Position numbers and translations under genes: made by a program. The notes beneath the pieces are model-generated. The model was not told the DNA's origin. It saw only the letters and a list, made by a program, of their open reading frames with translations, and made no database searches. A stretch of 64,000 bases of DNA. Source: Sulfurimonas hydrogeniphila. Lineage in GTDB: Bacteria; Campylobacterota; Campylobacteria; Campylobacterales; Sulfurimonadaceae. Below are positions 3,390 to 43,074 of this stretch, piece after piece; position 1 is the stretch's first letter, and every line of letters starts with the position of its first letter. The DNA lies in NCBI RefSeq assembly GCF_009068765.1, contig NZ_CP035534.1, positions 434,001-498,000 on the forward strand, written 5' to 3'.

Positions 3390-3746
3390 TTATTTTTCAA
3401 TAAGAAAAACGGTAATGCCATACTCTTTGGCAATGAGTTTTAATCGCTTTAAATAACGACGCTCTTTTTCTCTATTGATAATGAATCCTACTGCAGGTTT
3501 TTTCCCTGTCATTTTTGCATAGTAAAGTGACTGTCCTATGCTCTCTGCCCATTTTTTTGCAAAATCTACCTCTATGGCATACTCAGGTGTTAAACAATCA
3601 ACCCGTGTTCTGTCTTTGAGGGTGTATTCCATTATACCATCCATCTTCTTACAAAGCTTAGTTTGGTAGTAGCGCTCATGATGCACCTGTGTATCTGCAC
3701 AGCCAATAAACAACCATGAAAATATGACAACAGCTATAAGCTTCAT
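3390..3746 (-). CDS. lipoprotein with nuclease-like fold signature
   Basis: A 118-residue protein starting MKLIAVVIFSWLFIGC, a typical lipoprotein signal with the acylated cysteine at residue 16. The middle contains DCLTPEYAIEVDFAKKWAES followed by IGQSLYYAKMTGKKPAVGFI. The order D...EVDFA..W..(I)GQ..YY resembles a PD-(D/E)XK-type fold, as seen in small hypothetical proteins of mobile elements, although the catalytic ExK is ExD here, so activity is doubtful. The gene overlaps its upstream neighbour by 4 bp. A 15-base stretch of this gene recurs in a CRISPR spacer (see rejected items). Confidence 0.6.
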   Translation of the reverse strand: MKLIAVVIFSWLFIGCADTQVHHERYYQTKLCKKMDGIMEYTLKDRTRVDCLTPEYAIEVDFAKKWAESIGQSLYYAKMTGKKPAVGFIINREKERRYLKRLKLIAKEYGITVFLIEK

Positions 3747-4078
3747 ATTTTCTTCCTAAGTGAGAGTTGTTGGATCTTCTCCTCTAAAGCTTTTTCTTGC
3801 TGCTCTTTTTTATACTCTTTCCACTCCGTTTCAATCTCATTGATAAGTTCTCTTTTTATAGCGGCTGTTGCCACTACAACTTTTGGTGCATTCTTTATAG
3901 CACAACCGGTTGCACTGAGTGTAAGCTTTGTTAGTGATGCCCCAAAACGAAAGAGACTCTTGGCAACATCTCTTTTCTTTTTCTTCTCATCAACCATGTT
4001 TTCCAGGCACTTTGCAAAGTCTGAAAAAGTTCCTTCTGCTTTTGAAAGCAACACTTCGCAATCACTTCTGTTTTTCAT
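3743..4078 (-). CDS. hypothetical protein, operon member
   Basis: 111 residues, highly charged at both ends. A weakly hydrophobic, alanine-rich segment lies in the middle (about residues 45-75, LTLSATGCAIKNAPKVVVAT). The C-terminus is rich in Lys and Glu and likely a coiled coil (EWKEYKKEQQEKALEEKIQQ). No family is recognised. It overlaps both neighbours by 4 bp (ATGA type), so it is translationally coupled within the eight-gene operon read from the promoter at 5735-5765. Confidence 0.6.
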   Translation of the reverse strand: MKNRSDCEVLLSKAEGTFSDFAKCLENMVDEKKKKRDVAKSLFRFGASLTKLTLSATGCAIKNAPKVVVATAAIKRELINEIETEWKEYKKEQQEKALEEKIQQLSLRKKI

Positions 4079-4647
4079 GACAAATCTCCTATAAACGGGA
4101 ATGGTTCATCAAGCATCACACAACACTGCGTCTCTTTTCGCAGCCTTTGTATAAGGTCACTCTCATAAAGAGTTGTTTGTGTCATCTGAAGATAGAGCAG
4201 ATTTTTTAACTCCAACAACTCGTTAGGAAGCTCTTGTAAAACATGGAGGTTTCTGATATCTAAAATCTCTAATTTTTGAAGATTTTTGATATCTGCAGGA
4301 ATTTTCTCTATGGGATTGCCTCCTGCAATATGATTTCCGAGTGTGAGTTCTTTGAGATTACCCATGCTCCAAACCCACTGCGGAACTTCTTCTATATAGT
4401 TTCCAGCCAAATTGATATGTTCTAAAGTTGTGAGGTAGCTCAATGCAGATGGCATTTCTACTAGCAATGAGTAGCTTAAGTCCAACTCTTTGATGGTGTA
4501 TAAATCTTCAACGCCCCAAGCAATAATCCCTTTTTTTAACCAAAGGTCATATTGATATTTACTGCCGCCTTGAAGGGATCTTTCATAGAGTGCCTGATCA
4601 AGATCTTTGAAAAAATCGATTACTATTTCATATGATTTCGTTATCAT
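4075..4647 (-). CDS. short leucine-rich repeat protein
   Basis: 190 residues. After about 50 N-terminal residues there are four or five LRR units (for example LKELDLSYSLLVEMPSAL and LEHINLAGNYIEEVPQWV) with the bacterial IPxxI/LPxxL signature. It has no signal peptide. It overlaps the membrane protein gene upstream by 20 bp and the next gene by 4 bp. Beside small membrane proteins, an LRR could act as a sensing or scaffolding subunit; this is inference from operon position. It is a separate, shorter relative of the LRR protein at 940-2067. Confidence 0.7.
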   Translation of the reverse strand: MITKSYEIVIDFFKDLDQALYERSLQGGSKYQYDLWLKKGIIAWGVEDLYTIKELDLSYSLLVEMPSALSYLTTLEHINLAGNYIEEVPQWVWSMGNLKELTLGNHIAGGNPIEKIPADIKNLQKLEILDIRNLHVLQELPNELLELKNLLYLQMTQTTLYESDLIQRLRKETQCCVMLDEPFPFIGDLS

Positions 4648-4996
4648 GTTTTGCCTTTACATATTTTTCCATGATCTGTTCACTCTGCGTGAGTAACTTT
4701 TTCTTTGAGAGCAAATGCTCTTTTTTGGAATCGGTTTTTTCTTTTGAGAAAGGTTGTGAAGCCATAGTGAAAATCCGGATAATTTTTAAAACTATCAGCC
4801 ACAAAAGAGCAAATACAATTACCCATTTAATGAGCAACATAAAATATGCCACACTCTCCTGAGAGACACTTATGAGGTCATTCATAATCAGACTCACAAG
4901 GAGCAATACAACGCCATAAAGTATGAGCATGCCGATATGACTTTTTGCTTTTTTGTAAAAGTTCGCCAAATAGAGATATTTTAATATTCGTAACAT
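4628..4996 (-). CDS. two-span membrane protein, operon member
   Basis: 122 residues. Hydrophobic segments at roughly residues 20-40 (IGMLILYGVVLLLVSLIM) and 52-74 (FMLLIKWVIVFALLWLIVLK) give two membrane spans, followed by a basic cytoplasmic tail (KEKTDSKKEHLLSKKKLLTQ). The start codon follows the stop of the upstream gene by one base. I do not recognise the family. It could anchor the neighbouring LRR protein at the membrane. Confidence 0.65.
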   Translation of the reverse strand: MLRILKYLYLANFYKKAKSHIGMLILYGVVLLLVSLIMNDLISVSQESVAYFMLLIKWVIVFALLWLIVLKIIRIFTMASQPFSKEKTDSKKEHLLSKKKLLTQSEQIMEKYVKAKHDNEII

Positions 4997-18263: not shown

Positions 18264-19299
18264 GTTTCAATCCCCTTGAAATCGGGTCAATGTTGTAATG
18301 ATGGTAAAACATATTCAGTAGCTAAAAGCAACGGGTTTCAATCCCCTTAAAATCGGGTCAATGTTGTAATGATGGTAAAACATATTCAGTAGCTAAAAGC
18401 AACGGGTTTCAATCCCCTTAAAATCGGGTCAATGTTGTAATTAGTAGAAATACTACACCATATCAAGGTTATCAAGTTTCAATCCCCTTAAAATCGGGTC
18501 AATGTTGTAATCTGTATACGGAGAAAGAAGATGACAATAATTAAACAGTTTCAATCCCCTTAAAATCGGGTCAATGTTGTAATTGGAGCATCTGCTTGAA
18601 AGTATAGATTAGTAGAGTTTCAATCCCCTTAAAATCGGGTCAATGTTGTAATAGTAAAGTGCGGTAGTAGCGCTCATACGGCTACTGGTTTCAATCCCCT
18701 TAAAATCGGGTCAATGTTGTAATAAAAGTAGCGGGTGAAATGCCTACAAATGGTTCTGAGTTTCAATCCCCTTAAAATCGGGTCAATGTTGTAATAGAGA
18801 TTACACAACTAGTAACATCTATTACAGGGTGTTTCAATCCCCTTAAAATCGGGTCAATGTTGTAATAATAGAATAGAATAGAATAGAATAATAAATAAAA
18901 TAGTTTCAATCCCCTTAAAATCGGGTCAATGTTGTAATCTATGACTTATACGATAGTTATAGCAAGTCTATTAAGTTTCAATCCCCTTAAAATCGGGTCA
19001 ATGTTGTAATTACTCTTATATATACTGCTACTGTTCATAGTATCACGTTTCAATCCCCTTAAAATCGGGTCAATGTTGTAATTGGAATGCATACTTAGCT
19101 AAAGGTACTAAAGGTAGTTTCAATCCCCTTAAAATCGGGTCAATGTTGTAATCGCTTGAAACGCTCTGCAGTAGAATTTGAGCTATACTGTTTCAATCCC
19201 CTTAAAATCGGGTCAATGTTGTAATTTGAGTGAAGTTCGTGCATATATGACTAGCCGTTAATTGTTTCAATCCCCTTAAAATCGGGTCAATGTTGTAAT
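18264..19299 (-). CRISPR. CRISPR array, 15 repeats and 14 spacers
   Basis: Fifteen 36-bp repeats (plus-strand start GTTTCAATCCCCTTAAAATC, end TTGTAAT) with spacers of 33-38 bp. The reverse complement ends GGGGATTGAAAC, giving the usual 8-nt crRNA 5' tag ATTGAAAC, so transcription is on the minus strand from the right, the same strand as the cas genes. The leftmost repeat (18264-18299) carries one substitution (G for A), as expected at the old end. Spacers at 18300-18334 and 18371-18405 are identical, a duplicated repeat-spacer unit. The spacer at 18867-18902 is low-complexity (repeats of AATAG). Confidence 0.97.
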
Positions 19300-30618: not shown

Positions 30619-31436
30619 TTACTCTCCTTAATTTCAATCTTGCCAAGCCCAAAGACTGTACTTTTTCCAACACCTACAAGTTCGCCAATTCTTAAGATAT
30701 TGTACTCTTCTTTTGTTAAGCCTTCTATGGCTATCTCACCTATTAAGCCATCAAGGTTCATAGTAGTTTTTTGTCGGTTGCTTCTTCTGGTTAGTTGTTT
30801 ATAGTTTAACTCTTTTTTTACTATTTTACCCTTCATCTTGTAAGGAAATTTTCTATAATCTTTTCCCAAGAGTTTCATCTGCCTTTGATAGATTGAATTG
30901 ATTATATCTTTTAACTCTATGTTATCATCTCTTAAAAATCTATTGTTCTTTTTAATCCTTAAAGGTGTGATGAATTTGATTAAAACATCTTGGTAATAAT
31001 TTTCTATTGTAAAGGTTTTTGTGTAGTTTTGTGGAAGTTGGATTGTGCCATTTTTGTTTATGAGAGTATTATTTACAAATATATCAAAATTGCTAAATTT
31101 TAATCTGTCTCGACCAAGTCCAACTTCACCCAAAAGTTTAATAAAAGCCGAAATTACATAAGGTAGTTTAGAAACTGCATCTTCAAAAAGATAAAGATTG
31201 AAATCATAATAATTCAAACCTAACTCAAAATCAAATCTATATGAATGAAAAGAGTTCTTTTTCTCGTAAAAGTCATAGTAGAGACAACTATCTTTTGCAA
31301 AGCAGCCATCACATGTAAAAGAAGGATTTATACAAACAACTTTTTTAAGAGCATACCCAAATGCACCACGAAGTTGTGAACCTATAAAATATGGAGGTTT
31401 TGCATTTATAATAATAGATAATTTTGTAAAAATCAT
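30615..31436 (-). CDS. cas6: Cas6 pre-crRNA endonuclease
   Basis: 273 residues. It belongs to the Cas6 group with an N-terminal cysteine cluster (CDGCFAKDSCLYYDFYE) and the C-terminal RAMP loop GVGKSTVFGLGKIEI. The middle has LLGEVGLGRDRLKFSNFDI. Cas6 cuts the array transcript within each repeat to leave the 8-nt tag ATTGAAAC. It is the first gene of the interference operon cas6-cas10-csm2-csm3-csm4-csm5-csx1-MYG1-WYL. Confidence 0.9.
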   Translation of the reverse strand: MIFTKLSIIINAKPPYFIGSQLRGAFGYALKKVVCINPSFTCDGCFAKDSCLYYDFYEKKNSFHSYRFDFELGLNYYDFNLYLFEDAVSKLPYVISAFIKLLGEVGLGRDRLKFSNFDIFVNNTLINKNGTIQLPQNYTKTFTIENYYQDVLIKFITPLRIKKNNRFLRDDNIELKDIINSIYQRQMKLLGKDYRKFPYKMKGKIVKKELNYKQLTRRSNRQKTTMNLDGLIGEIAIEGLTKEEYNILRIGELVGVGKSTVFGLGKIEIKESK

Positions 31437-31494
31437 AATATTTTCACAATAACTTTATTTAAAGTGATTTTTTGTTTTTTCCATTGCATAATAT

Positions 31495-31500
31495 ATTATA
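31495..31500 (-). promoter_or_regulatory. candidate -10 box of the csm operon
   Basis: TATAAT on the minus strand in a very AT-rich 207-bp gap upstream of cas6. The 14-bp island element is absent from this gap, so the csm operon is not under the shared promoter. Nothing else is seen in the gap. Confidence 0.35.
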
Positions 31501-31643
31501 TCTTTTTATTATAAAAATAGTTTAAATAAAGTTTAAAATATTATACAATAGTTAGTTATTTAACACTTTATAAACTTTTTAAGGTTGTACTCTATTGTAA
31601 CTAAAAGCACCATATCTTGATAGATTTTTTATATACTCGTATT

Positions 31644-32881
31644 TCAATAAAATTCTACATCATTTTTTAAATCTATTATCACTTTTTTTATCTTTTTATC
31701 AACATTAAGCGATAATAGTCCTTCTGTATTAAGTCTTATCTTTGATATTTTTACACGACTTTCTTGGTCTGGATCTTCAAATTCATCACCTTTTGTTTTT
31801 GTAAAGTTTGGAATGTAGCTTTTTGAATCTAATTTTTCTACGTTGTAACTTTTTAGAAAATAGTATGTTTTAGTAAACTTCTTGATTTTTTTCTCATCAT
31901 ACTCTCTGTGAAATCTTTTAAAGAGTTTTTTTGTAAAATCATCTAATGAGTAGAGTAAAGTAAGATTGTCTATTTGTCTGAAAAAATATATCCAGCCATA
32001 TTGTTTATTTTTGTAAACACAGCCTGATATTTTTAGATTTAATTCTCTATAAAGTGTGGCATCATCATTTTTTATATTTTTGTAAAATACCCCAACAATT
32101 CTTTCCCTGAGTCTATCTACTGAGCTTTCTCTTACAGATATTTTATCTTTAAAAAACTCAAATCCCAGGTATTGAAATTTATCTTCTTTAAGTGAGCCGA
32201 CAGTTGATTTGTTACTGTGAGTTTTTATCTCATGCATAGTTAGTTTCAACAACTTCATTTGTTCAGATATTTCAGAGATTATTTCTTCTATATCATCTTT
32301 ATTGCAAAATATTAAAATATCATCAACATATCTAAAATATTTTAAGTTGCTTTTGGTAGAAAACTTTTTATCTAAATCGCTTAAATATATTTGAGATAAA
32401 ATATTAGAGATGGACAAACCTTGGGGAATGCCTTTTCCATTTTTTCAACCAAAATCGCATGGTCAATATTTGGGAAAAAGTTTTCAATATCTACTTTTAT
32501 AAAACTATCATACTGCTGTAGTTTTAAAGTTTTTATAATCTTTGAAACTTTTGTGTTTACATTATCATCAGATATGCTATCTTTAATTTCATCTTTTAAA
32601 AATTTTTGCAAGGCAGCAAGAGTCAATCTGTCTCTGTTAGTTGGTATAGATATTATTCTAGGATTTGAATCTTGACCTTTTAGTATGAGTTGTTCTTTGT
32701 AGGGAGAAAATTTATATGTATGATTTTTAATTTTTCTTTTTATGATATTTATTTCATCATCTATAATATTACTAAATTTTTTTGTAGAGATTCCATCTGT
32801 TCCTGTTATTTCACTGTTCTTTATTTTTTTTTCAAAAATCTTGTGAAGTGCTTTGCTTTTTAAATACTTTTTAAATTTCAT
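31644..32881 (-). pseudogene. reverse transcriptase with internal deletion and frameshift
   Basis: The 5' frame (32381-32881) holds fingers motifs PRIISIPTNRDRLTLAALQK and palm motif A DSFIKVDIENFFPNIDHAIL. The 3' frame (31644-32417) holds motif B GIPQGLSISNIL, the catalytic YVDDILIF, FQYLGFEF and thumb sequence. Only about 13 residues separate motif A's His from IPQG where 40-50 are usual, and the phase changes there (about 32417-32430). An out-of-frame deletion thus inactivated the enzyme. The type is retron-like or defence-RT-like; I cannot decide between them. A structured RNA leader and a shared promoter precede it. It starts ATG 32881 after GGAG. Confidence 0.8.
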
Positions 32882-32897
32882 TTAATCTCCATTTAGC

Positions 32898-33046
32898 AAG
32901 CAAAACATATAAAGTTTTCTATTTTATACCTAATAATAAATATTAAGCTTATTATATCTAAATGCCTAAGCATTAATTTTATCTATTTATATCTCTGATT
33001 AAACAGAGATCTACCAAATCAAAAGATAAGGTAATATGTTTTGCTT
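32898..33046 (-). ncRNA. structured leader RNA of the reverse transcriptase (retron/DRT-like)
   Basis: AAGCAAAACATAT at 32898-32910 and its exact reverse complement at 33034-33046 form a 13-bp closing stem around about 120 nt. That interval contains hairpins ATCTCTG/CAGAGAT (32991-33010) and AATGC/GCATT (32961-32974). The promoter's -10 box (33053-33058) predicts transcription to begin at about 33046, the first base of the closing stem. Placement just upstream of an RT gene, bounded by inverted repeats, matches msr-msd or DRT-type RNAs. It is inferred from base pairing only. Confidence 0.55.
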
Positions 33047-33052
33047 AATGTA

Positions 33053-33084
33053 ATTATACATTACAAGGTTGGTCATATTTTGTC
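33053..33084 (-). promoter_or_regulatory. shared island promoter, copy 11 (RT RNA)
   Basis: Minus strand: GACAAAATATGACC (33071-33084), 12 bp (the only copy not at 11), TATAAT (33053-33058). Confidence 0.7.
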
Positions 33085-33156
33085 TAAAATTATATTTTAT
33101 GGAAATGTTAACTTCTTATCTTCTTCTAACAGTTGCATATTCAAATCAAAACTATA

Positions 33157-34929
33157 TTAAGTCATCATTTCATAGGTAATATTTTCCAAATTTCTTTCAC
33201 AGCTTTTTATTGTAAGATTACCTATAGATCTAGCAATAGTATTATTTTCTATAGAGATAAATTCAATTTTTCTAAGATGCACAAGTTTTGCTAAAAATTT
33301 AAATACTTCTTCTGATAATAATCCACCATGGATAACAACTTCTTGAAGTGTATATATATTTTCTATAATTGTAATGTCTTTATTTAACAAATTTCCATCT
33401 ATACTTAGATATCTGAGAGATAGTTTAGAAAAGTTTTCAGGAATAACCTTGAGTGTAGGATTGTTACTAATATCCAACTCTCTTAAATTATGCAATCGAT
33501 CTATATCTGCAGGTAATGATTCAAGATGGTTGTTAGCCAAAGACAATATAGCTAATTTTTTTAGTTTGTATATATTTGGAGATATAGTTCTAACAGTATT
33601 GTTTTTTAATATTAATTCTTTTAGATTTACAAGAGAAAACACATCTTCAGGAATATTTTCTATATCTTTTTTATCAACATATAAAATCGATATATCTTTT
33701 ATAATTTCTTTTGATAATCCAGATGAATAACAAAAAGTTGCATTCATTTTTTGTAATAGAGACATTATCTCTTTATCATGTATCATTATTTTATCATCAA
33801 ACTCAAAAGAGAAAAATTTTCCAGTCTCAAATTGAAATACAAAATTTAAAGTTGAAGTTCCATATATATTTTTAATAATTGAAATAGTAACATCTGGCTC
33901 CCGTTTTTGGATATAACAATTATTTGGCTCTTTGCCTTGCAACAATGCGTTTTCCTCTTTAGTAAGTGCTATATCTTCTTCATAAAACTGGGGAATATAT
34001 ATCATTATAATTGTATTTGCTTCCATTTCAATATAATTATTTTGAATATCTCTGATGTATGGTCTTTTATTTATTCTATTCTCTATACTTTTATCTAACT
34101 GTGACAGCAATATTATGGGTAAGTCTAATTCAATTGCCAATTTTTTAAATTCTCTTGCAAGATTTGAATTATTATGATTTTCAATAAGTTGAAAATAATC
34201 TATTACAATCATCTTAATATTGTTCTTTTCTACCATTTTTTTAGAAATTTTTTTAATATAATCAAATGTGATGTATTTTGAATCATCTATATACAAATTA
34301 TTGATACTAGCTCCAAATTTTTCTATCTCTTTGATTAAAAAATCTGTGGCATTTTTTAAATTATTTAATGGAATATTAGTTGTCATACTAATTATTTTTT
34401 TTAACAATTGAATCTTTGTGAGATCTAATGAAAAATAGAGTACATTGTTGTTCTGCTGTATATTTTCTAATACACTACTTAGAATGAATGATGTTTTTCC
34501 AAAACCAACCCTTGCAGCAATTACATTTAGCTCTTTATTTCTAAATTTATTAATCCTGTTATCCAGTTCATTGAACCCAGTTGTTATCCCAGTATCTTCG
34601 CTATTTATAACAGAAAGTTCTTTTTTAATGTTTTCATTTTATTTATAATTCAACTGCTTTCTAAGGATAGTTGGAACATCATAATCTATATCTTTTGCAT
34701 TTCTTTTTTTCCTTCTTAAAGAGACATCACCTATAATTGGTTTTCTTATCTCCAATATTGTCTCTTTGGAGATATTGCCATAAGCAATTAATATCTGCTC
34801 TAATGTTGTACAATACCCTTTTATATGCGCTAAATCAACGTTGTCAGATCCAATTGCTAAGCACTCTTTATATTCAATATACCCAAGTTTTAAACTCTCT
34901 AGTAACTCTTCTGTTGATATTTGTATCAC
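33157..34929 (-). pseudogene. DnaB-like RecA ATPase fused to leucine-rich repeats, with an in-frame TAA
   Basis: One continuous frame is interrupted only by TAA at 34639-34641. The N-part (34642-34929, 96 residues) is charged and unknown. After the stop the frame reads DTGITTGFNELDNR, Walker A VIAARVGFGKTSFIL, Walker B KMIVIDYFQLIENH and LDLPIILLSQLDKSIENRIN, the order of the DnaB helicase core. From about 200 residues before the end the DnaB-like part passes into LRRs (LVNLKELILKNNTV, LKKLAILSLANNHLESLPAD). No ATG, GTG or TTG lies between the stop and Walker A, so the second part cannot start alone with a whole ATPase. It is a recent nonsense mutation, stop readthrough or a sequence error. 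Confidence 0.75.
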
Positions 34930-35012
34930 TTTCCTCTCCTCTAATGAATAAATTTTAATGTAAAACTATTCTTCTGTGCTATATTAGATCAGTTTTTTTA
35001 TGATAGATGTGA

Positions 35013-35208
35013 TTATACTATTTTTTTAAGCATTTCTTTTATATCTTCATAACTCTCTAAGGCTGAAGCTCTTCCAACTTCAGGATTCATACCGGCACCT
35101 TTACCATCCGTTATATTCTTACCGATTTGGAGCTTATGTTTGGCATTTGAATGAACTAGGAGTCTGTGTTGATGACTATTATTTAAGTATCTAACTAATA
35201 TGACTTTG
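35013..35208 (-). pseudogene. FtsZ/tubulin-like N-terminal remnant
   Basis: The minus-strand frame reads NAKHKLQIGKNITDGKGAG then MNPEVGRASALESYEDIKEM and stops at 35013-35015. Bacterial FtsZ proteins have the very similar order HKLQIGKKLTxGLGAGANPEVGRxAAEES in the GTP-binding N-domain; the rest of the protein is missing. The only ATG (35090) is inside the GAGANP loop, so the piece is a fragment. The small gene at 3287-3376 repeats the last part of this peptide. Copy 12 of the shared promoter sits just upstream, so a tubulin-like gene was once part of the regulon. Confidence 0.6.
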
Positions 35209-35244
35209 TTAAATATAGTTTTCTTCCTTTTTTTATTTTGTGGT

Positions 35245-35275
35245 AGTATAGAATTTTAGATGGTCATATTTTGTC
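35245..35275 (-). promoter_or_regulatory. shared island promoter, copy 12 (FtsZ-like remnant)
   Basis: Minus strand: GACAAAATATGACC (35262-35275), 11 bp, TATACT (35245-35250). Confidence 0.7.
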
Positions 35276-35368
35276 AATTTTTAATTATTTTGAGAGTATC
35301 GTATATAATGTGTTCTGTACTCTCCTTCGGTAACATTAAAAAGAGCTTCATTCCAAAATTTAAATCTG

Positions 35369-35589
35369 AAGTGCAATTTTTTTAGAATTTGAAAATAAAA
35401 AGTTGTAAACTTAGATTTGAAGAGGTTAAATGTTAAAATCTTACTTCAAATTCTAACCACAGAATATAGGAGAAGTAAAGATGAGTTATAAACATTTAAC
35501 CATAGAAGAACGATACCAAATATAAGCTTATAAAGAGGTAGATTTTTCTAAAAGTGAAATTGCTAAAAAATTAAAAGTACATCGTATTG
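35369..35589 (+). mobile_element. IS30-family fragment, left end
   Basis: AAGTGCAATTT (35369-35379) is a terminal repeat also found at the end of the other IS30 fragment (50015-50025). A transposase start at 35481 (AGGAG upstream) reads MSYKHLTIEERYQI, a TAA stop, then AYKEVDFSKSEIAKKLKVHR, the IS30 N-terminal helix-turn-helix. The element is cut off at 35589 directly against the orphan promoter, so it is a truncated, inactive copy. Together with the FtsZ remnant this accounts for the 730-bp stretch 34930-35660. Confidence 0.8.
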
Positions 35590-35597
35590 TTTTAGAA

Positions 35598-35628
35598 ATA
35601 ATATGAAAAATGTTAGACTTATTTTGTC
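35598..35628 (-). promoter_or_regulatory. shared island promoter, copy 13 (orphan)
   Basis: Minus strand: GACAAAATAAGTCT (35615-35628), 11 bp, TATTAT (35598-35603). It points into the truncated IS30 end, so the gene it served has been lost or displaced. Confidence 0.7.
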
Positions 35629-35660
35629 TATAAATTATCTTTTATAGATTAAAGAGCATC

Positions 35661-36854
35661 TTAGTATAAAAACCCAAACAACCATATGGGCACTCTGTTT
35701 CCACTACCCACTTCTATATCATCGGCTACGATAAAAGAGTTTGGTATATCCTTTATCTGTTTGTATTTTTTGTTTTTACCACCCACTTCCAAAGTGTATT
35801 TTTCATCTACAAGCAAATCACCTTTTTTTGCTGCTTGGATGGTGTGAGCTTGGCTCAACATACTTGCGACAAAAACCTCTCTGAGTGTGCCTGTGTTGTT
35901 ATGGCTGCAGTAGGCATAATGTAAGTTTGTATTGTTTAGGTAGATTTTATCTGGTTTGACAAAGATGTTATCCCCTTTTGATGCAGGTTTTAAAGTGGTA
36001 AATATTTTTGCACGACTGAGATACTCTATAAACCTGTAAAGCCCTTTGTAGTTGTCTTTCATATCCATTTTTGCTAAAAGCTCTTTGATGTTTGGAGTGT
36101 ATGGGTGTGATTCACAGAGGAGTCGTACTAATTTTTTTAGATTTTGTACACTGCTGTAGTCTATAGGAAAAATGGAAGGGATGTCCACTTCTATAACGGT
36201 ATTTATTGTCTCATTGAGTCTGATGAGATAATCCTCTTTATCTTCAAAGTAAAAGGGATAGTAGCCACTTTTGATATACTCTCTAAAAAGTAGTGTGAGA
36301 TTGAATTTTTGTAAAAGTTTGTACGCTATATCTATATGATTTGTCAAAATATCTTCAAGTGCAAACGCGGGGAGTTCGATGCCTTTTTCTAGCTCTATAA
36401 ACTCTCTAAAACTTAAACCATACACACTGTAAAGTCTTGCCCGTCTGCTAAGGTCTGCTTTTGCATTATTTATACTTAATGCACTGCTTCCACTAAAGAT
36501 AACTTTGAGATTTAACAAGTCATAAATCTTTTTTAACTCTATCTCAAAGTTTTTATATTTGTGTATCTCATCGATGATGAGCACTTCACCTTCCTCTTTA
36601 CTAAAAGAGTTGGCTACTTCAAACAGGGATGGAATGGTTATGATATCTGCACTGATGTAGAGTTTTTTAGAAAATGGCAAATCAAGCTCTTTGAGGTACT
36701 GCAAGAGGTACGTAGTCTTCCCAACCCCTCTAGCCCCTACAATACCGACAAGCTTTTTATCAAGATTTATAGTTTTATGAAAATATCTTTTGTATGTGAA
36801 GTTGTTATTTTCAAAAAGTTTTCGCTGATACTCTCTAAGTTCATCCAACTGCAT
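35661..36854 (-). CDS. AAA ATPase of the AAA_14/DUF4143 type
   Basis: 397 residues. Walker A LVGIVGARGVGKTTYLLQYL is at about 35-54 and Walker B EGEVLIIDEIHKYKNFEIEL at about 92-111, followed by VIFSGSSALSINNAKADLSR (sensor 1 and Arg). The C-terminal half contains LREVFVASMLSQAHTIQAAK and LEVGGKNKKYKQI, the nuclease-like DUF4143 region. Such proteins are common in prokaryotes and poorly understood; some are linked to mobile elements and toxin systems. A decayed copy of its 5' end lies at 38181-38240. Confidence 0.85.
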   Translation of the reverse strand: MQLDELREYQRKLFENNNFTYKRYFHKTINLDKKLVGIVGARGVGKTTYLLQYLKELDLPFSKKLYISADIITIPSLFEVANSFSKEEGEVLIIDEIHKYKNFEIELKKIYDLLNLKVIFSGSSALSINNAKADLSRRARLYSVYGLSFREFIELEKGIELPAFALEDILTNHIDIAYKLLQKFNLTLLFREYIKSGYYPFYFEDKEDYLIRLNETINTVIEVDIPSIFPIDYSSVQNLKKLVRLLCESHPYTPNIKELLAKMDMKDNYKGLYRFIEYLSRAKIFTTLKPASKGDNIFVKPDKIYLNNTNLHYAYCSHNNTGTLREVFVASMLSQAHTIQAAKKGDLLVDEKYTLEVGGKNKKYKQIKDIPNSFIVADDIEVGSGNRVPIWLFGFLY

Positions 36855-38180: not shown

Positions 38181-38240
38181 GTTTTCTTTGATACTCTCTA
38201 AGTTTATCTAATGGCATTTAAGAACCTTTTTTGTTTCATT
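38181..38240 (-). pseudogene. relic of the 5' end of the DUF4143 ATPase gene
   Basis: About 60 bp (plus-strand GATACTCTCTAAGTTTATCT and following) matches 36822-36881, the start and upstream region of the ATPase gene at 35661-36854. The copy has a stop where the original has a codon. It shows that a second copy of the gene existed here and was lost. Confidence 0.65.
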
Positions 38241-39915
38241 GCACCTTTTTTCTAATACCAGATTTTGTAATGATTGTCTCTCTTTGATGCAAAGGTTTTA
38301 CTTTTTTTGGAGCGTAAGGAATATAATGTGGAGGTTTTTCTATAATTTTGATGATAGTGAACAAAGTTTGAAACCATTGCATTATCTCATTTTTGGATAT
38401 TGCTTTATATCTTGTGTTCGAGTGTACATAATTATTTCTTCTTACTATAAAGGAGTTTATATTTTCAATTTTATAGCCAAATTTATGCATCAACGATATA
38501 ATTCTGTCTTCAAATTTTTTACTTCTGCACTCTTCACCGTCCCAATATATATTATCAATTTGCCTTTCTGTTATAAATACACTTAAAATGGCTTCTAAAC
38601 TACGGGCAATTGAAAGCATTGCATAAGGATATTTGTTTGATGTATTACTACTTAAAATATCAAAAATCTGGGGAATATCTTCTTGAAGTTGTATCCAATA
38701 TTTTTCATATTTAGTTTTGTGTAAAGTGTATTGATGAAAAATATCATTTTTTAATATTTTTAACATATTTTTTTGTATATCATAGATATCTTTAAGATAC
38801 TTTTCTGCTAATCCTCTATTGACCAATTTGATTAACTTGTTAATATTGCTTTGAGTCGTTAGATTATAGTTTTGAAGATGCTCTTTTTTTACATAACCCA
38901 AAATATTGCTATCATAATTATAGAGTTCATCAAGCAAAAGGCTATTGCTTGATGCTGTAAATATAACTATCTGAATACCAGGATTAAATTCTTTTATTTT
39001 GTTAAATATTTGAATACCTGTAAAATCAATTAGTTTAGTATCTTTTAAAAAATCATCTTCATGCAATCTCATATCTAATATAATCACATCTGGATTAAAA
39101 CTAATAATATCTGCCATGATAAGTGTGATGATCTCTTCTTGTTTCTTGTCCTTGTAAGTTGTTTCTACTGTTTGCAAGTGGCAACTATCAACTTCTTTAA
39201 ATATGTGTTCAAAAATGCTTTTCCAGCCTTTTTCCCACTCATCATCTATATAAAGGACTTTCCCACTTTCATGAAGTTTCTGCTTGTGCTTAGTAAAGAG
39301 ACTTTTTTGTATAGGAAATTTTTCTTGTAAATATTTAAAATATAACATTGAGGATATATCATTTTTAATTTGTGCTATATCGGTAGTTTGAACATCTAAA
39401 TACTTCGCCCATCTGTACATACTCCATTCATTCGCAATACCATGATGAGACAAGTAATCTTTTGGTTGTTCAACTGCTATTTTTTTCAAAAAATCAGTTT
39501 GATACTCTTCTAGGGATAGATGAGTAAAATGAAACATTTTACTATTTTCTATTGCTTTTTGAGTATTTGCAATTAAAAATATATTTTTAGTAAAAAGTAT
39601 TTTTGCCATCATATCAAGTTTATTTAATAGGCAAGCGTCAAGATCACTGATGATTACGATTGGTAGATACCTTTTAGTTTCTAACTCTTTTGAGAGTCGT
39701 ATATGGTAAGCGACTCTTAGCCCAAGTAGCTCAAGATAGTTTGAAGATAAATTGTCTTTGATAAAGATTATATCTGTATTGTTTGGTATTTTTGTTACAA
39801 TATTTTCTGATATATTTCTATCTGTATCATCTATTGGTGGATATTTTATTTCTGCTGTAAATAGTTTTATGTCTATTATGTTGTCATTATGTATAATTAA
39901 GCTATTCATTTTCAA
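38236..39915 (-). CDS. receiver-like domain fused to a HEPN-like RNase domain
   Basis: 559 residues. From about residue 215, KVLYIDDEWEKGWKSIFEHI, then FNPDVIILDMRLHEDDF (phosphoacceptor-type Asp), IVIFTASSNSLLLDELYNYD and GYVKKEHL (Lys) follow the order of a response-regulator receiver domain. The C-terminal 170 residues are helical and contain SFIVRRNNYVHSNTRYKAIS, an R-x4-H HEPN RNase motif. The N-terminal 200 residues resemble another degenerate receiver. This could be a signalled RNase. A relic of a homologous C-terminus lies at 44453-44527. It overlaps the next gene by 14 bp. Confidence 0.7.
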   Translation of the reverse strand: MKMNSLIIHNDNIIDIKLFTAEIKYPPIDDTDRNISENIVTKIPNNTDIIFIKDNLSSNYLELLGLRVAYHIRLSKELETKRYLPIVIISDLDACLLNKLDMMAKILFTKNIFLIANTQKAIENSKMFHFTHLSLEEYQTDFLKKIAVEQPKDYLSHHGIANEWSMYRWAKYLDVQTTDIAQIKNDISSMLYFKYLQEKFPIQKSLFTKHKQKLHESGKVLYIDDEWEKGWKSIFEHIFKEVDSCHLQTVETTYKDKKQEEIITLIMADIISFNPDVIILDMRLHEDDFLKDTKLIDFTGIQIFNKIKEFNPGIQIVIFTASSNSLLLDELYNYDSNILGYVKKEHLQNYNLTTQSNINKLIKLVNRGLAEKYLKDIYDIQKNMLKILKNDIFHQYTLHKTKYEKYWIQLQEDIPQIFDILSSNTSNKYPYAMLSIARSLEAILSVFITERQIDNIYWDGEECRSKKFEDRIISLMHKFGYKIENINSFIVRRNNYVHSNTRYKAISKNEIMQWFQTLFTIIKIIEKPPHYIPYAPKKVKPLHQRETIITKSGIRKKVQ

Positions 39916-40567
39916 TGCTTTTTTTAATATAGTTGCTTAGACTCTTTTTTAGTTCTAAAATATTCTCAAATGCAACCTTATTAAATTTGTCTTTTTCTAT
40001 TTTAAAATCAAATTGTATATCTTCTAATAAGTACATATCAACGACTTCGATCATTTTTTTATAATTTATAGTTTTTTGGTCTCTGTTTCTTTCTACAAAA
40101 AGTGATAAACTCTCAAAAATATTTAAGGCTATATTGAGTTTGTATCTCTGTCCATAAATTAACATCAAAAGATTATGATTATTTTCTCTATAGCTTTGTA
40201 AAAACAGTTCCAGATTTCTACTATAGAACACTTTTGAATTAGTGATAATAAACTCATAATTTGCATTGTGATAATAATTTTCATCAACGCCACCAGAAAA
40301 AAACACTAATGCTTTTTTATTGGTTTCACAATGAGTTTTCAATTTGTCAAGTATGAGAGTATTGTCATCTTCATAAGCTGATTTATGTGTAATAATAATA
40401 TCATAAGGGCTAAAATCAAAATTATCATTGAGCATATCTTTTACAAAAGTATCATATTTTTTCTCTATAAAATTATCTAAAATATCACTATACAAACCGA
40501 GATCTATATGCGTGTCTTGCATAAAAAGTGCTTGCCTTTTTGCTCTGTCTTCTATCAAGAGTATCAT
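39902..40567 (-). CDS. receiver-like hypothetical protein
   Basis: 221 residues. The first strand MILLIEDRAKRQALFMQD resembles the acidic pocket of a response regulator (E-D in place of D-D). FDFSPYDIIITHKSAYEDD and ALVFFSGGVDENYYHNANYE continue a Rossmann-like alternation without a clear phosphoacceptor Asp. The C-terminal half is helical (FNKVAFENILELKKSLSNYI). It lies between the ankyrin gene (17-bp gap) and the receiver-HEPN gene (overlap 14 bp), and is probably a signalling subunit. Confidence 0.6.
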   Translation of the reverse strand: MILLIEDRAKRQALFMQDTHIDLGLYSDILDNFIEKKYDTFVKDMLNDNFDFSPYDIIITHKSAYEDDNTLILDKLKTHCETNKKALVFFSGGVDENYYHNANYEFIITNSKVFYSRNLELFLQSYRENNHNLLMLIYGQRYKLNIALNIFESLSLFVERNRDQKTINYKKMIEVVDMYLLEDIQFDFKIEKDKFNKVAFENILELKKSLSNYIKKSIENE

Positions 40568-40584
40568 GATATGCGTTTTTCCCC

Positions 40585-43074
40585 TTACTTATAAAACCTA
40601 AGTATATGTGTAAATCCACTTGGTGCTTTATCTAGTTTTTCTATATTTCCTGCATTATTGCTTTTTAAATAATTAATTTTATTGTTTTCATTTTTATAGC
40701 TATCTAGCACGCTCCAATCGCATAAATTCTGCAATGCTTCTCGTATGTTTAAGAAATCACCATCATTTACTTGTTCTAACAACTCCTGAGGAGTTCTATT
40801 TGAGGATGAATTGAGATGAGTAATGTAGAGTTCTATATACTTTGCCAGACTCTCTTTTGGCTTATGTACTGCAACTAAAACTTCATCTAAACTGCTATTT
40901 GTAGTATGAAATTTTATAAATTGTTGGAATATTATATCTAAAGCACTTTTAAACTTTTCTACATCAGTATAAAAATCAACACCTTTAACAGATGCGTCAA
41001 TATCACAAGCTATATCATTATCATTTAATTTAATTTCAAAATCATCAAAAATTTTCTCTAGCATATTACTATCATTTCGTACTTCTATTTCCTCTTTAAA
41101 TAACGATACAAGCTCGCCAAAAGTTGTGATAGTTTGATTAGTAACTTTTATAGGTTCTTTTAATACAAACTCAAAAGGCTTCTTCCCATTGTTAATATGC
41201 TCTTTTAGTTCATCCACAGATGACCAACCAAGTCGTAACTTCTCATCTTTTGACCAAATAGTCGCTTCATCGGTATTTTTAAATATAAAGCTTTCTATTT
41301 TTTGATACAAATTTGGTGAAAGTTCTTTGAGTTCATCTTTTATAGTATTCCATTGGTTTTGAACTTTTGAAATAAAGTCATCAAAACGTAAAACATCTTT
41401 ATTCTCACAACTCCCTTCCCACGAATGAGTTGTACATTTTATAGGAGTGTCGAGAGTGAAAAATGTAAGTAATTTCATCAATGCTTGTGGATTGTTATTT
41501 GGTTGCAAAAAAGTTGAAGATTTTTCAATAAGTTCTATTAACTCTGTTTGTTGAAGATATTTAACTCTATCATATAAACTGTCGCCATTATTTAATTGAA
41601 TATTAACATCAGCACCGTTTTCTATGAGAAGTTTTACAACATCAATCAAATTTTTTTCATAGGCTATAGAAAGTGCTGTTTGATTTTTATTATTTTTAAT
41701 ATTTATATCACCGCCAAGATCTATAAATCGTTGAGTTAGTATGATAGGGTCTACATTTTTAAATTTTTCTTGCAATTGTTGAGAGAGATTAGATGATTTC
41801 ATATTCATAATATTAGATATGTTAGATAATTTCATAGATAACTGTTGCTGTTTTAGTAGCACATCAGATAAAATACTATTCTTATCAGGTAAGTTTTTTA
41901 ATGTCTTTTTAAAAGCTTCTAAGTTGCTTTCTATCTTTTTATTTGCATTATATACTGCTTGATAGAGATCTGGCATACTATTGAACATTTCCAGTAAAGC
42001 ATTTTGCATATTTTTTTCAAAATTTGCTATATCAAGATCTAAAAAAATCATTAATAGGCTATCATTGTCTTCATCTACATCTTGTATGTTTATATCTCTT
42101 CGTTTCAATAACTTTAAAGATCTTTCGTCACCAGATAAAAATAAAGCTCCGAGAAAATCAATCTCTGAAAGTTTTTTAGCGCCTTGTTCTATTAAATACT
42201 TTGACATTTCATGAGTGCCAAACATTATGGAAACCATAAGTGGAGAAGCTGCGTTTTCCGTATTAACTTTAGCACCATATTTTATAAGCAATTTTGCTGT
42301 ATCATTTTTATCAAATAGTATGCTAAAAACCAATAAATTATGCCCTTTAATTTCTTGATTAACATCAGCTCCATGCTCTATAAGTAATTTAGCAATATCA
42401 GTTTCGCCGAACATTATTGTATATGCCAATAGACTCAATCCTTCAATTTCTTGATTAACATCAGCTCCATGTTCTATAAGTAATTTAGCAATATCGGGTT
42501 GATTAAAATTAATGGCAGTTGCTAATAAATTTTTGTCTATACTAACATCAGCACCATTTTCCAGTAATATTTTTACTATATCACCCCTATCATATACTCT
42601 GGCGAATGTTAATAAACTCAAATCTTTAATTTTTTCATTTGGATTTAAACCATTATTTAGCAAAAACTCTATTGTGTCTGAGTTATCTTCAAGTAAAATA
42701 GATTTTATAAATTCTTTTTTACCAATATATTTAATTGTTATTTTTGATAACTGTTTATCTTTGGCTACATTAACAAATCTAAATAGTGAAATTGGTATCT
42801 CTTTTATAATAAAATAGGTATTAATATCGTTAGCTAACAATATCTCAATAATTTCATATCGCTTTTGTATAATAGCTAATAGTAATAGATCTTTTTCATT
42901 TCGTAAATCTATACCTTGTTCAACCAATAGTTTTGTATTTTCAATATCATTTAAAAGAACAGTTGCATCTAAAGTACGTGCAAGCTCCTTTTTTGATAGC
43001 TGTTGATTATTTTTAATTGCTGTAACATTTTTAGATATTATTTCTTTTATTAATTGATTATTCTTATCTTGCAT
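40585..43074 (-). CDS. large ankyrin-repeat protein
   Basis: 829 residues. Between about residues 20 and 330, and again near 440-490, it has ankyrin repeats (LLIEHGADVNQEIEGLSLLA is seen twice almost unchanged; LLIENGADVNIQ). The C-terminal 330 residues are charged, helical and of unknown family, containing WEGSCENKDVLRFDDFIS and LRLGWSSVDELKEHIN. There is no signal peptide. It is first of three genes behind copy 14 of the shared promoter. The ankyrin platform may recognise a ligand and pass it to the receiver/HEPN partners. Confidence 0.75.
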   Translation of the reverse strand: MQDKNNQLIKEIISKNVTAIKNNQQLSKKELARTLDATVLLNDIENTKLLVEQGIDLRNEKDLLLLAIIQKRYEIIEILLANDINTYFIIKEIPISLFRFVNVAKDKQLSKITIKYIGKKEFIKSILLEDNSDTIEFLLNNGLNPNEKIKDLSLLTFARVYDRGDIVKILLENGADVSIDKNLLATAINFNQPDIAKLLIEHGADVNQEIEGLSLLAYTIMFGETDIAKLLIEHGADVNQEIKGHNLLVFSILFDKNDTAKLLIKYGAKVNTENAASPLMVSIMFGTHEMSKYLIEQGAKKLSEIDFLGALFLSGDERSLKLLKRRDINIQDVDEDNDSLLMIFLDLDIANFEKNMQNALLEMFNSMPDLYQAVYNANKKIESNLEAFKKTLKNLPDKNSILSDVLLKQQQLSMKLSNISNIMNMKSSNLSQQLQEKFKNVDPIILTQRFIDLGGDINIKNNKNQTALSIAYEKNLIDVVKLLIENGADVNIQLNNGDSLYDRVKYLQQTELIELIEKSSTFLQPNNNPQALMKLLTFFTLDTPIKCTTHSWEGSCENKDVLRFDDFISKVQNQWNTIKDELKELSPNLYQKIESFIFKNTDEATIWSKDEKLRLGWSSVDELKEHINNGKKPFEFVLKEPIKVTNQTITTFGELVSLFKEEIEVRNDSNMLEKIFDDFEIKLNDNDIACDIDASVKGVDFYTDVEKFKSALDIIFQQFIKFHTTNSSLDEVLVAVHKPKESLAKYIELYITHLNSSSNRTPQELLEQVNDGDFLNIREALQNLCDWSVLDSYKNENNKINYLKSNNAGNIEKLDKAPSGFTHILRFYK

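What the first reader, a model, noticed from the sequence alone, without database searches (positions are those of the whole stretch)
33157..34929. DnaB-type RecA ATPase fused to leucine-rich repeats, interrupted by one in-frame TAA
The DnaB core (Walker A ARVGFGKT, Walker B KMIVIDYFQ, ILLSQLDKS) is followed by LRRs, a fusion I do not know from described defence systems. The single TAA at 34639-34641 is the only interruption in 590 codons, and no normal start lies between it and Walker A. It may be a readthrough switch, a fresh nonsense mutation or an error. LRRs could detect a phage replication protein while the DnaB part mimics the host or phage helicase.
Basis: partly seen in the sequence, partly recalled or inferred. 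Interest (0 to 1): 0.75.

Follow-up and report, generated by a model that had tools for sequence, protein, structure and literature searches.

The report
Stop is a gene boundary, not interruption
The stop codon does not break a gene: it is the normal end of a small upstream gene, and behind it lies a separate, long-preserved but start-less gene that joins a worn-out copy of the DNA-unwinding enzyme DnaB to leucine-rich repeats, in a decaying part of a bacterial defence island.

Summary
The sequence features are real: a 493-codon open frame (33157-34638, minus strand) joins a DnaB RecA domain to leucine-rich repeats (LRRs), a TAA precedes it, and no ATG/GTG/TTG lies in frame before Walker A. 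The reading of the TAA is wrong. The 96 codons before it (34639-34929) are a complete small gene with ten relatives in 7 other genomes of the family (200 sampled, own included); 9 of the 10 stop at the same place.

The DnaB-LRR frame is a separate cistron. Coding bias and lack of stops show long conservation as protein, but it has lost catalytic and DNA-contact residues, and I found no relative with the same fusion. The ATG beside the ORF1 stop is one base out of frame, at an A AAA AAG run. The FtsZ-like remnant upstream and the reverse transcriptase downstream are broken, so I read it as recently start-less and probably silent; frameshift-driven expression is possible but weakly supported.

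New lead: four other genomes of the genus (Sulfurimonas) carry open frames joining a DnaB N-terminal-like domain (weak to moderate match) to LRRs. DnaB piece plus LRR may be a recurrent, apparently undescribed theme there.

The parts
34639..34929 (-). ORF1: complete 96-aa gene, GTG start; its stop is the TAA in question
34639..34641 (-). TAA: natural stop of ORF1
33157..34638 (-). DnaB-LRR open frame, 493 codons, no in-frame ATG/GTG/TTG before 34407
33811..34638 (-). DnaB-like linker and RecA ATPase domain (residues 1-276), with catalytic Glu and finger Arg replaced
33229..33708 (-). leucine-rich repeats and C-terminal part (about residues 311-470)
34605..34637 (-). ATG one base out of the DnaB frame, 10 codons plus stop, one base after ORF1's stop (TAAAATG)
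34620..34626 (-). A AAA AAG, in phase with that ATG; a -1 slip would enter the DnaB frame (possible, unproven)
35013..35183 (-). 5'-truncated remnant of an FtsZ-like mini-gene that precedes ORF1 as an open frame in G099; no ATG/GTG/TTG before codon 56 of the 81-codon open stretch (35013-35255)
31644..32881 (-). RT_UG17 (DRT10-type) reverse transcriptase pseudogene: about 24-30 residues missing plus frameshift

Best explanation
Two neighbouring genes were read as one. ORF1 is a small intact gene and the TAA is its stop (shown by homology). Directly after it lies a separate gene for a diverged DnaB RecA domain fused to LRRs. That gene was kept as a protein for most of its history (shown by the open frame and codon bias) and changed at catalytic and DNA-contact positions (shown), so it probably served as a non-helicase binding or sensing protein rather than a motor (inferred). 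It now lacks a usual in-frame start: the adjacent ATG is one base out of frame at an A6 run. With broken genes on both sides, it is most likely a recently silenced, or switched-off, member of a decaying defence-island locus (inferred).
For: ORF1 homologues: 7 other genomes of 200 hold 10 strong places; 9 of those 10 end 3-9 residues after a shared P-[TAS]-[IF]-x-R motif (window: 6), with TAA, TGA or TAG; one is an annotated CDS of Sulfurimonas paralvinellae. tblastn of the DnaB-LRR protein found nothing in 8 of 8 ORF1 homologue loci. The open frame scores 0.237 per codon on the codon table of 12 reference genes (their range 0.152-0.318); 0 of 60 neutral simulations kept zero stops even at 10% amino-acid divergence. 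Of 165 columns at least 95% invariant in 34 canonical DnaBs it keeps 73; the catalytic-Glu column is D72, the finger-Arg column I258, and RESG became gap-QNN. Decay: the RT lacks UG17 profile positions 156-179 and is frameshifted; the FtsZ-like remnant is 5'-truncated and has no start before codon 56 of 81.
Against: A true pseudogene usually gathers further stops; this one has none, so any loss is recent or the gene is still expressed. The genome is a single contig of 100% completeness, so a base-call error is not the default, though I could not see reads. The A AAA AAG heptamer has the right phase for expression by a -1 slip. DnaB-frame homology starts at residue 3, just upstream of the A run, which slightly favours 5' truncation over a one-base loss.
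Confidence: 0.66

Rival explanations
1. The DnaB-LRR cistron is alive: ribosomes ending ORF1 restart at the overlapping TAAAATG and slip -1 at A AAA AAG into the DnaB frame, so output is coupled to ORF1 translation and to slippage.
For: The ATG begins one base after the stop and the heptamer is in phase with it; AAA AAA GNN is rare, 17 of 6043 codon positions in 12 reference genes; a hairpin begins 4 nt downstream, -14.1 kcal/mol, 3 of 200 shuffles at least as good.
Against: The hairpin is not exceptional: 38 of 500 synonymous shuffles, 16 of 121 AAAAAAG sites in the window and 12 of 470 windows of the same open frame fold as well (the last two counts include or overlap the site itself). By eye the ATG has no good ribosome-binding site. 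No homologue exists to test conservation.
Confidence: 0.14
2. The gene is 5'-truncated: recombination joined the 3' end of ORF1 to the linker of a longer DnaB-LRR gene that once had its own start and N-terminal domain; what remains is dead. (This overlaps with the best explanation: silent, but by another route.)
For: Homology to replicative DnaB starts at residue 3, profile position 160 of 472, with no room for a start; ORF1's C-terminus has 6 residues after the motif Arg against 3-5 in 8 of the 9 relatives with the motif and 9 in the other; neighbours show similar truncations.
Against: The junction would have to fall within a few bases of ORF1's stop by chance. DnaB relatives without the usual N-terminal domain may exist independently.
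Confidence: 0.14
3. Stop-codon readthrough switch or fresh nonsense mutation in one 590-codon gene.
For: ORF1 and DnaB-LRR share a frame; the same frame is expected one time in three.
Against: ORF1 relatives are separate genes ending at this point in 9 of 10 cases; none of 8 loci holds the DnaB-LRR protein.
Confidence: 0.03
4. Assembly or base-call error in the A run; the real gene starts at 34637 and is intact.
For: Homopolymer runs are typical error sites (general knowledge); the frame is otherwise open over 493 codons.
Against: Only six A's. The neighbouring RT loss is a deletion of about 24-30 residues, not a homopolymer error.
Confidence: 0.1

Closest known systems
Replicative DNA helicase DnaB of the same bacteria (PF03796; best NCBIfam model PRK08506)
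   Same: Linker and RecA domain, including an insert seen in the aligned DnaBs of the genus; Walker A and B and the SQL motif present
   Different: No N-terminal domain; catalytic Glu to Asp, finger Arg to Ile, DNA-contact loop shortened; C-terminal LRRs; far below the PRK08506 cut-off (173 against 596 bits). The genome has its own DnaB (482-aa frame)
DnaB_N-like plus LRR proteins of the same genus (G081, G146, G047, G189)
   Same: A DnaB-like domain fused to LRRs; their tail (G081, G146) is the best partial match to the window's C-terminal 99 residues (E 9.7e-6)
   Different: They carry the N-terminal, not the RecA, domain of DnaB, and are uninterrupted. Over the whole LRR region other LRR proteins score higher (2.5e-14 against 1.5e-10), and the G047 tail matches poorly (0.43), so common descent with the window protein is not shown
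DRT10 (RT_UG17) defence system
   Same: The adjacent RT is of this class
   Different: The RT is broken. In G101 the intact RT has a SLATT_5 gene beside it (5.1e-31); I noted none beside the window's RT. DnaB-LRR does not appear in the passages read on DRT10 or among the genes near the three RTs fetched (by eye)

Membership tests
DnaB replicative helicase | RecA domain with Walker A and B | tested here: met
   PF03796 5.3e-27; motifs aligned
DnaB replicative helicase | DnaB N-terminal domain | tested here: not met
   Homology starts at PRK08506 profile position 160 of 472; ORF1 has no Pfam match at E 0.1
DnaB replicative helicase | catalytic Glu, finger Arg and DNA-contact loop (roles recalled) | tested here: not met
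   E to D72, R to I258, RESG to gap-QNN against 34 canonical DnaBs
DnaB replicative helicase | curated NCBIfam score | tested here: not met
   PRK08506 173 bits, cut-off 596; TIGR00665 163 bits, cut-off 385
LRR protein | tandem leucine-rich repeats | tested here: met
   LRR_8 3.5e-14, LRR_14 6.4e-11
Stop-codon readthrough gene | upstream and downstream parts form one gene in relatives | tested here: not met
   9 of 10 ORF1 relatives end there; 0 of 8 loci hold DnaB-LRR
-1 programmed frameshift gene | slippery heptamer in phase | tested here: met
   A AAA AAG at 34626-34620
-1 programmed frameshift gene | downstream stimulatory structure beyond chance | tested here: inconclusive
   3 of 200 shuffles but 38 of 500 synonymous shuffles
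-1 programmed frameshift gene | conservation in relatives | not testable with these tools
   no relative of the fusion found
Known anti-phage defence protein | match to a defence family model | tested here: not met
   0 PADLOC families at E 0.001 for DnaB-LRR and for ORF1

The most novel reading that the evidence does not exclude
In Sulfurimonas, defence islands repeatedly build proteins from a piece of the replicative helicase DnaB (N-terminal collar or catalytically disabled RecA domain) joined to LRRs. They act as decoys or docking sensors that watch for phage proteins attacking or hijacking DnaB. The window holds the RecA type, with output set by coupling to ORF1 and a -1 slip.
Probability: 0.12. 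Interest if true: 0.75.

Novelty: new variant of a known kind. Interest (0 to 1): 0.36.

Why it matters
It removes a false readthrough claim. It leaves a real and apparently undescribed protein architecture, DnaB pieces joined to leucine-rich repeats. The uninterrupted DnaB-N-like plus LRR genes in sister species can be tested directly for phage defence or helicase binding. If they are helicase decoys, they would be a bacterial counterpart of the plant 'integrated decoy' immune receptors (comparison from general knowledge).

Tried and rejected
Readthrough or nonsense reading: rejected on ORF1 homologues. Search for a related fusion: 200 family genomes at E 1e-8 (the list was cut, and no row shown except the genome's own reaches past query residue 293); 397 phylum and 135 genus genomes at E 1e-40. 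Apart from the genome itself, one search gave 4 hits, which align only up to residue 280, in frames of 461-488 aa, i.e. DnaB without the LRR part. The E 1e-40 cut would miss a diverged fusion reported as two separate matches. No phage record (0 of 846 with a match) and no plasmid record (0 of 1180) has one place covering 80% of the query. The genome-contig scan gave one ordinary DnaB; the viral scans gave none. These scans use exact peptide patterns and find close relatives only.

LRR-only search: 50 of 397 genomes matched, own included. I fetched 9 of the matching places as longer loci; in these the query's DnaB part had no match at E 0.001, only the LRR part. Frameshift hairpin: looked good against shuffles, weak against the other controls. 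Structure prediction of the DnaB-LRR protein from one sequence failed (mean pLDDT 38.6), so no fold search was run; ORF1 gave a tentative helical model (mean pLDDT 70.3 in the best of five models, the others 42-48). Rfam: 0 matches at E 0.5 in 31000-36000. In one search, L050 and L060 dropped out of the alignment because of my motif filter; the intact RTs of L078 and L079 were not aligned for the same reason, so the size of the RT deletion rests on one intact relative (L077) and the UG17 profile. One search suggested 33 missing profile positions because I gave it a piece trimmed at a TTG, on the whole open frames, shows 24 (156-179), and I use that. Paper searches with DnaB and LRR terms gave 0, 0 and 0 papers; frameshift terms gave 0; Sulfurimonas with LRR gave 3, none of which by its title concerns this (listing only).

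Full report
What is there. On the minus strand, 34929-34639 encodes 96 codons ending in TAA, and 34638-33157 continues in the same frame for 493 codons to the next TAA. The second part holds a DnaB C-terminal RecA domain and leucine-rich repeats. The DnaB domain starts almost at once: PRK08506, a replicative helicase model, aligns from residue 3 at profile position 160 of 472, though at 173 bits against a cut-off of 596, and the family's DnaBs align from residue 1.

The TAA is a gene end. ORF1 alone was searched in 200 genomes of the family. Ten of 200 matched at E 0.01: the genome itself, seven with strong matches (best E 7.5e-23 or better; ten places in all, the weakest place 1.1e-13), and two at E 0.003-0.004 in longer frames (351 and 258 aa), which I dropped. 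I aligned eight of the ten homologues with ORF1 and read the other two by eye. Nine of ten end 3-9 residues after a shared P-[TAS]-[IF]-x-R motif (the window: 6), with TAA, TGA or TAG. The tenth (L052, second copy) is diverged at its end. One homologue is an annotated protein on a Sulfurimonas paralvinellae plasmid, whose length equals that of contig G001:C2; G001 is listed as same genus, which places the window in Sulfurimonas. ORF1 in the window has GTG preceded by GGAGAGGAAA. tblastn of the DnaB-LRR protein against the eight homologue loci gave no match at E 0.001. So the shared frame is best read as a coincidence, expected one time in three.

The DnaB-LRR gene was a real gene. Its codon score is 0.237 in frame, against 0.026 and 0.039 in the other two forward frames; 12 reference genes in the window score 0.152-0.318. 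The DnaB, linker and LRR segments score alike (0.247, 0.303, 0.208). In a simple neutral model, drift to 10% amino-acid change already gave about 5 stops, and 0 of 60 runs stayed open. Catalytic-Glu column: D72. Finger-Arg column: I258. RESG became QNN with a one-residue gap (the roles of these residues are recalled). It is therefore unlikely to be a working ring helicase, although Walker A and B remain.

How it could be started. After ORF1's TAA comes AATGAAAACATTAAAAAAGAAC. The ATG is one base off the DnaB frame and meets a stop after ten codons; an A AAA AAG heptamer lies in phase with it, so a -1 slip would enter the DnaB frame. AAA AAA GNN occurs at 17 of 6043 codon positions in reference genes. 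A hairpin follows (-14.1 kcal/mol, 3 of 200 shuffles at least as good), but 38 of 500 synonymous shuffles, 16 of 121 AAAAAAG sites of the window and 12 of 470 windows of the same frame do as well. I consider frameshifting possible but weakly supported. Simple loss of the start is likelier, since the neighbours are broken too. The RT matches UG17 at profile positions 5-155 and 180-426 in two frames, so about 24 positions are missing; against the intact RT of G101 the gap looks like about 30 residues (by eye). Upstream of ORF1 lies a 5'-truncated copy (62% identity over 66 residues; no start codon before codon 56 of 81) of an FtsZ-like mini-gene that is an open frame just before ORF1 in G099 (PF00091 5.9e-18).

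Surroundings. The locus lies between a type III-A CRISPR-Cas operon (Csm2, Cas10 and Cas6 by Pfam; CARF-HEPN Csx1) with a repeat array at 18264-19225, and ATPases, an iREC gene and an ankyrin gene matching PADLOC PDC-M72A. Intact UG17 RTs were fetched from three relatives. In G101 a SLATT_5 gene lies beside the RT, as in DRT10. In G195 Cas6 and Cas10-type genes follow about 2 kb downstream. In G168 an SSB gene lies upstream. None of the three loci shows a DnaB-LRR gene (ORF lists, by eye). UG17 is the RT of DRT10, a system with a SLATT protein and an RNA (passages of PMC12632851 read).

Relatives of the architecture. No fusion of DnaB RecA with LRRs was found elsewhere (limits in Tried and rejected). 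But LRR searches led to proteins of G081, G146, G047 and G189 with LRRs by Pfam and an N-terminus resembling the DnaB N-terminal domain (PF00772, cut-off 23 bits). As full proteins they score 22.0 (G081), 22.9 (G146), 20.5 (G047) and 27.8 bits (G189); of two relatives without LRRs, G560 scores 29.2 bits and G069 gives no match at E 1. Trimmed to the N-terminus, 5 of 5 tested match at E 1 or better, best 3e-7 (only the first member's row was shown, 1.7e-5, 25.2 bits). Profile comparison with DnaB N-terminal domains gives probability 90, E 1.5e-6, over 43 columns. So the assignment is moderate, not firm. The family occurs in 6 of 135 genomes of the genus and in 3 of 298 of the order, all three in this genus. 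In G081 and G069 such a gene lies about 9 kb and 8.5 kb from an ORF1 relative. The G081/G146 tail is the best partial match of the window's C-terminal 99 residues (E 9.7e-6), but the G047 tail is not (0.43), and over the whole LRR region other LRR proteins score better. Shared descent is therefore not shown.

Mechanism. Shown: separate genes, fusion, loss of catalytic positions, no usual in-frame start. Inferred: a former binding or sensing protein, now off. That such proteins sense or mimic DnaB during phage attack is a hypothesis without direct evidence here.

Noticed in passing
L108:3037-4488, L109:1782-3233, L111:7768-9237, L110:8806-10161 (LRR); L113:2685-3332, L112:8253-8921 (no LRR): Family with DnaB N-terminal-like domain, four of six fused to LRRs, in 6 of 135 genomes of the genus; in G047 and G189 next to an AAA_2 (ClpX-like by eye) gene.
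   Followed up: partly
window 31644-32881: RT_UG17 (DRT10-type) pseudogene beside a type III-A CRISPR operon; intact relatives have SLATT_5 beside them in G101 (L077) and Cas6/Cas10 about 2 kb downstream in G195 (L078).
   Followed up: partly
L052:8817-9170 and window 35013-35183: FtsZ-like mini-gene (only the first part of the GTPase domain, PF00091 5.9e-18) directly before ORF1; remnant in the window.
   Followed up: partly
window 32898-33046: Inverted repeat with 26-nt arms (81%) in the gap between DnaB-LRR and the RT; possible remnant of an RT-associated RNA; no Rfam match.
   Followed up: no
window 33070-33101 and 35261-35292: Imperfect (75%) 32-nt direct repeat starting TGGTCATATTTTGTC on both sides of ORF1 plus DnaB-LRR; could mark an insertion or be chance.
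   Followed up: no
window 38236-43074: iREC protein and ankyrin protein (PADLOC PDC-M72A); genes with iREC and with HisKin-conflict plus ankyrin domains lie near an ORF1 relative in G081 (L056).
   Followed up: no
window 3390-4996 and L052:7455-8529: By eye, a set of small genes (one in the window an LRR protein) resembles genes beside the ORF1 homologue of G099.
   Followed up: no
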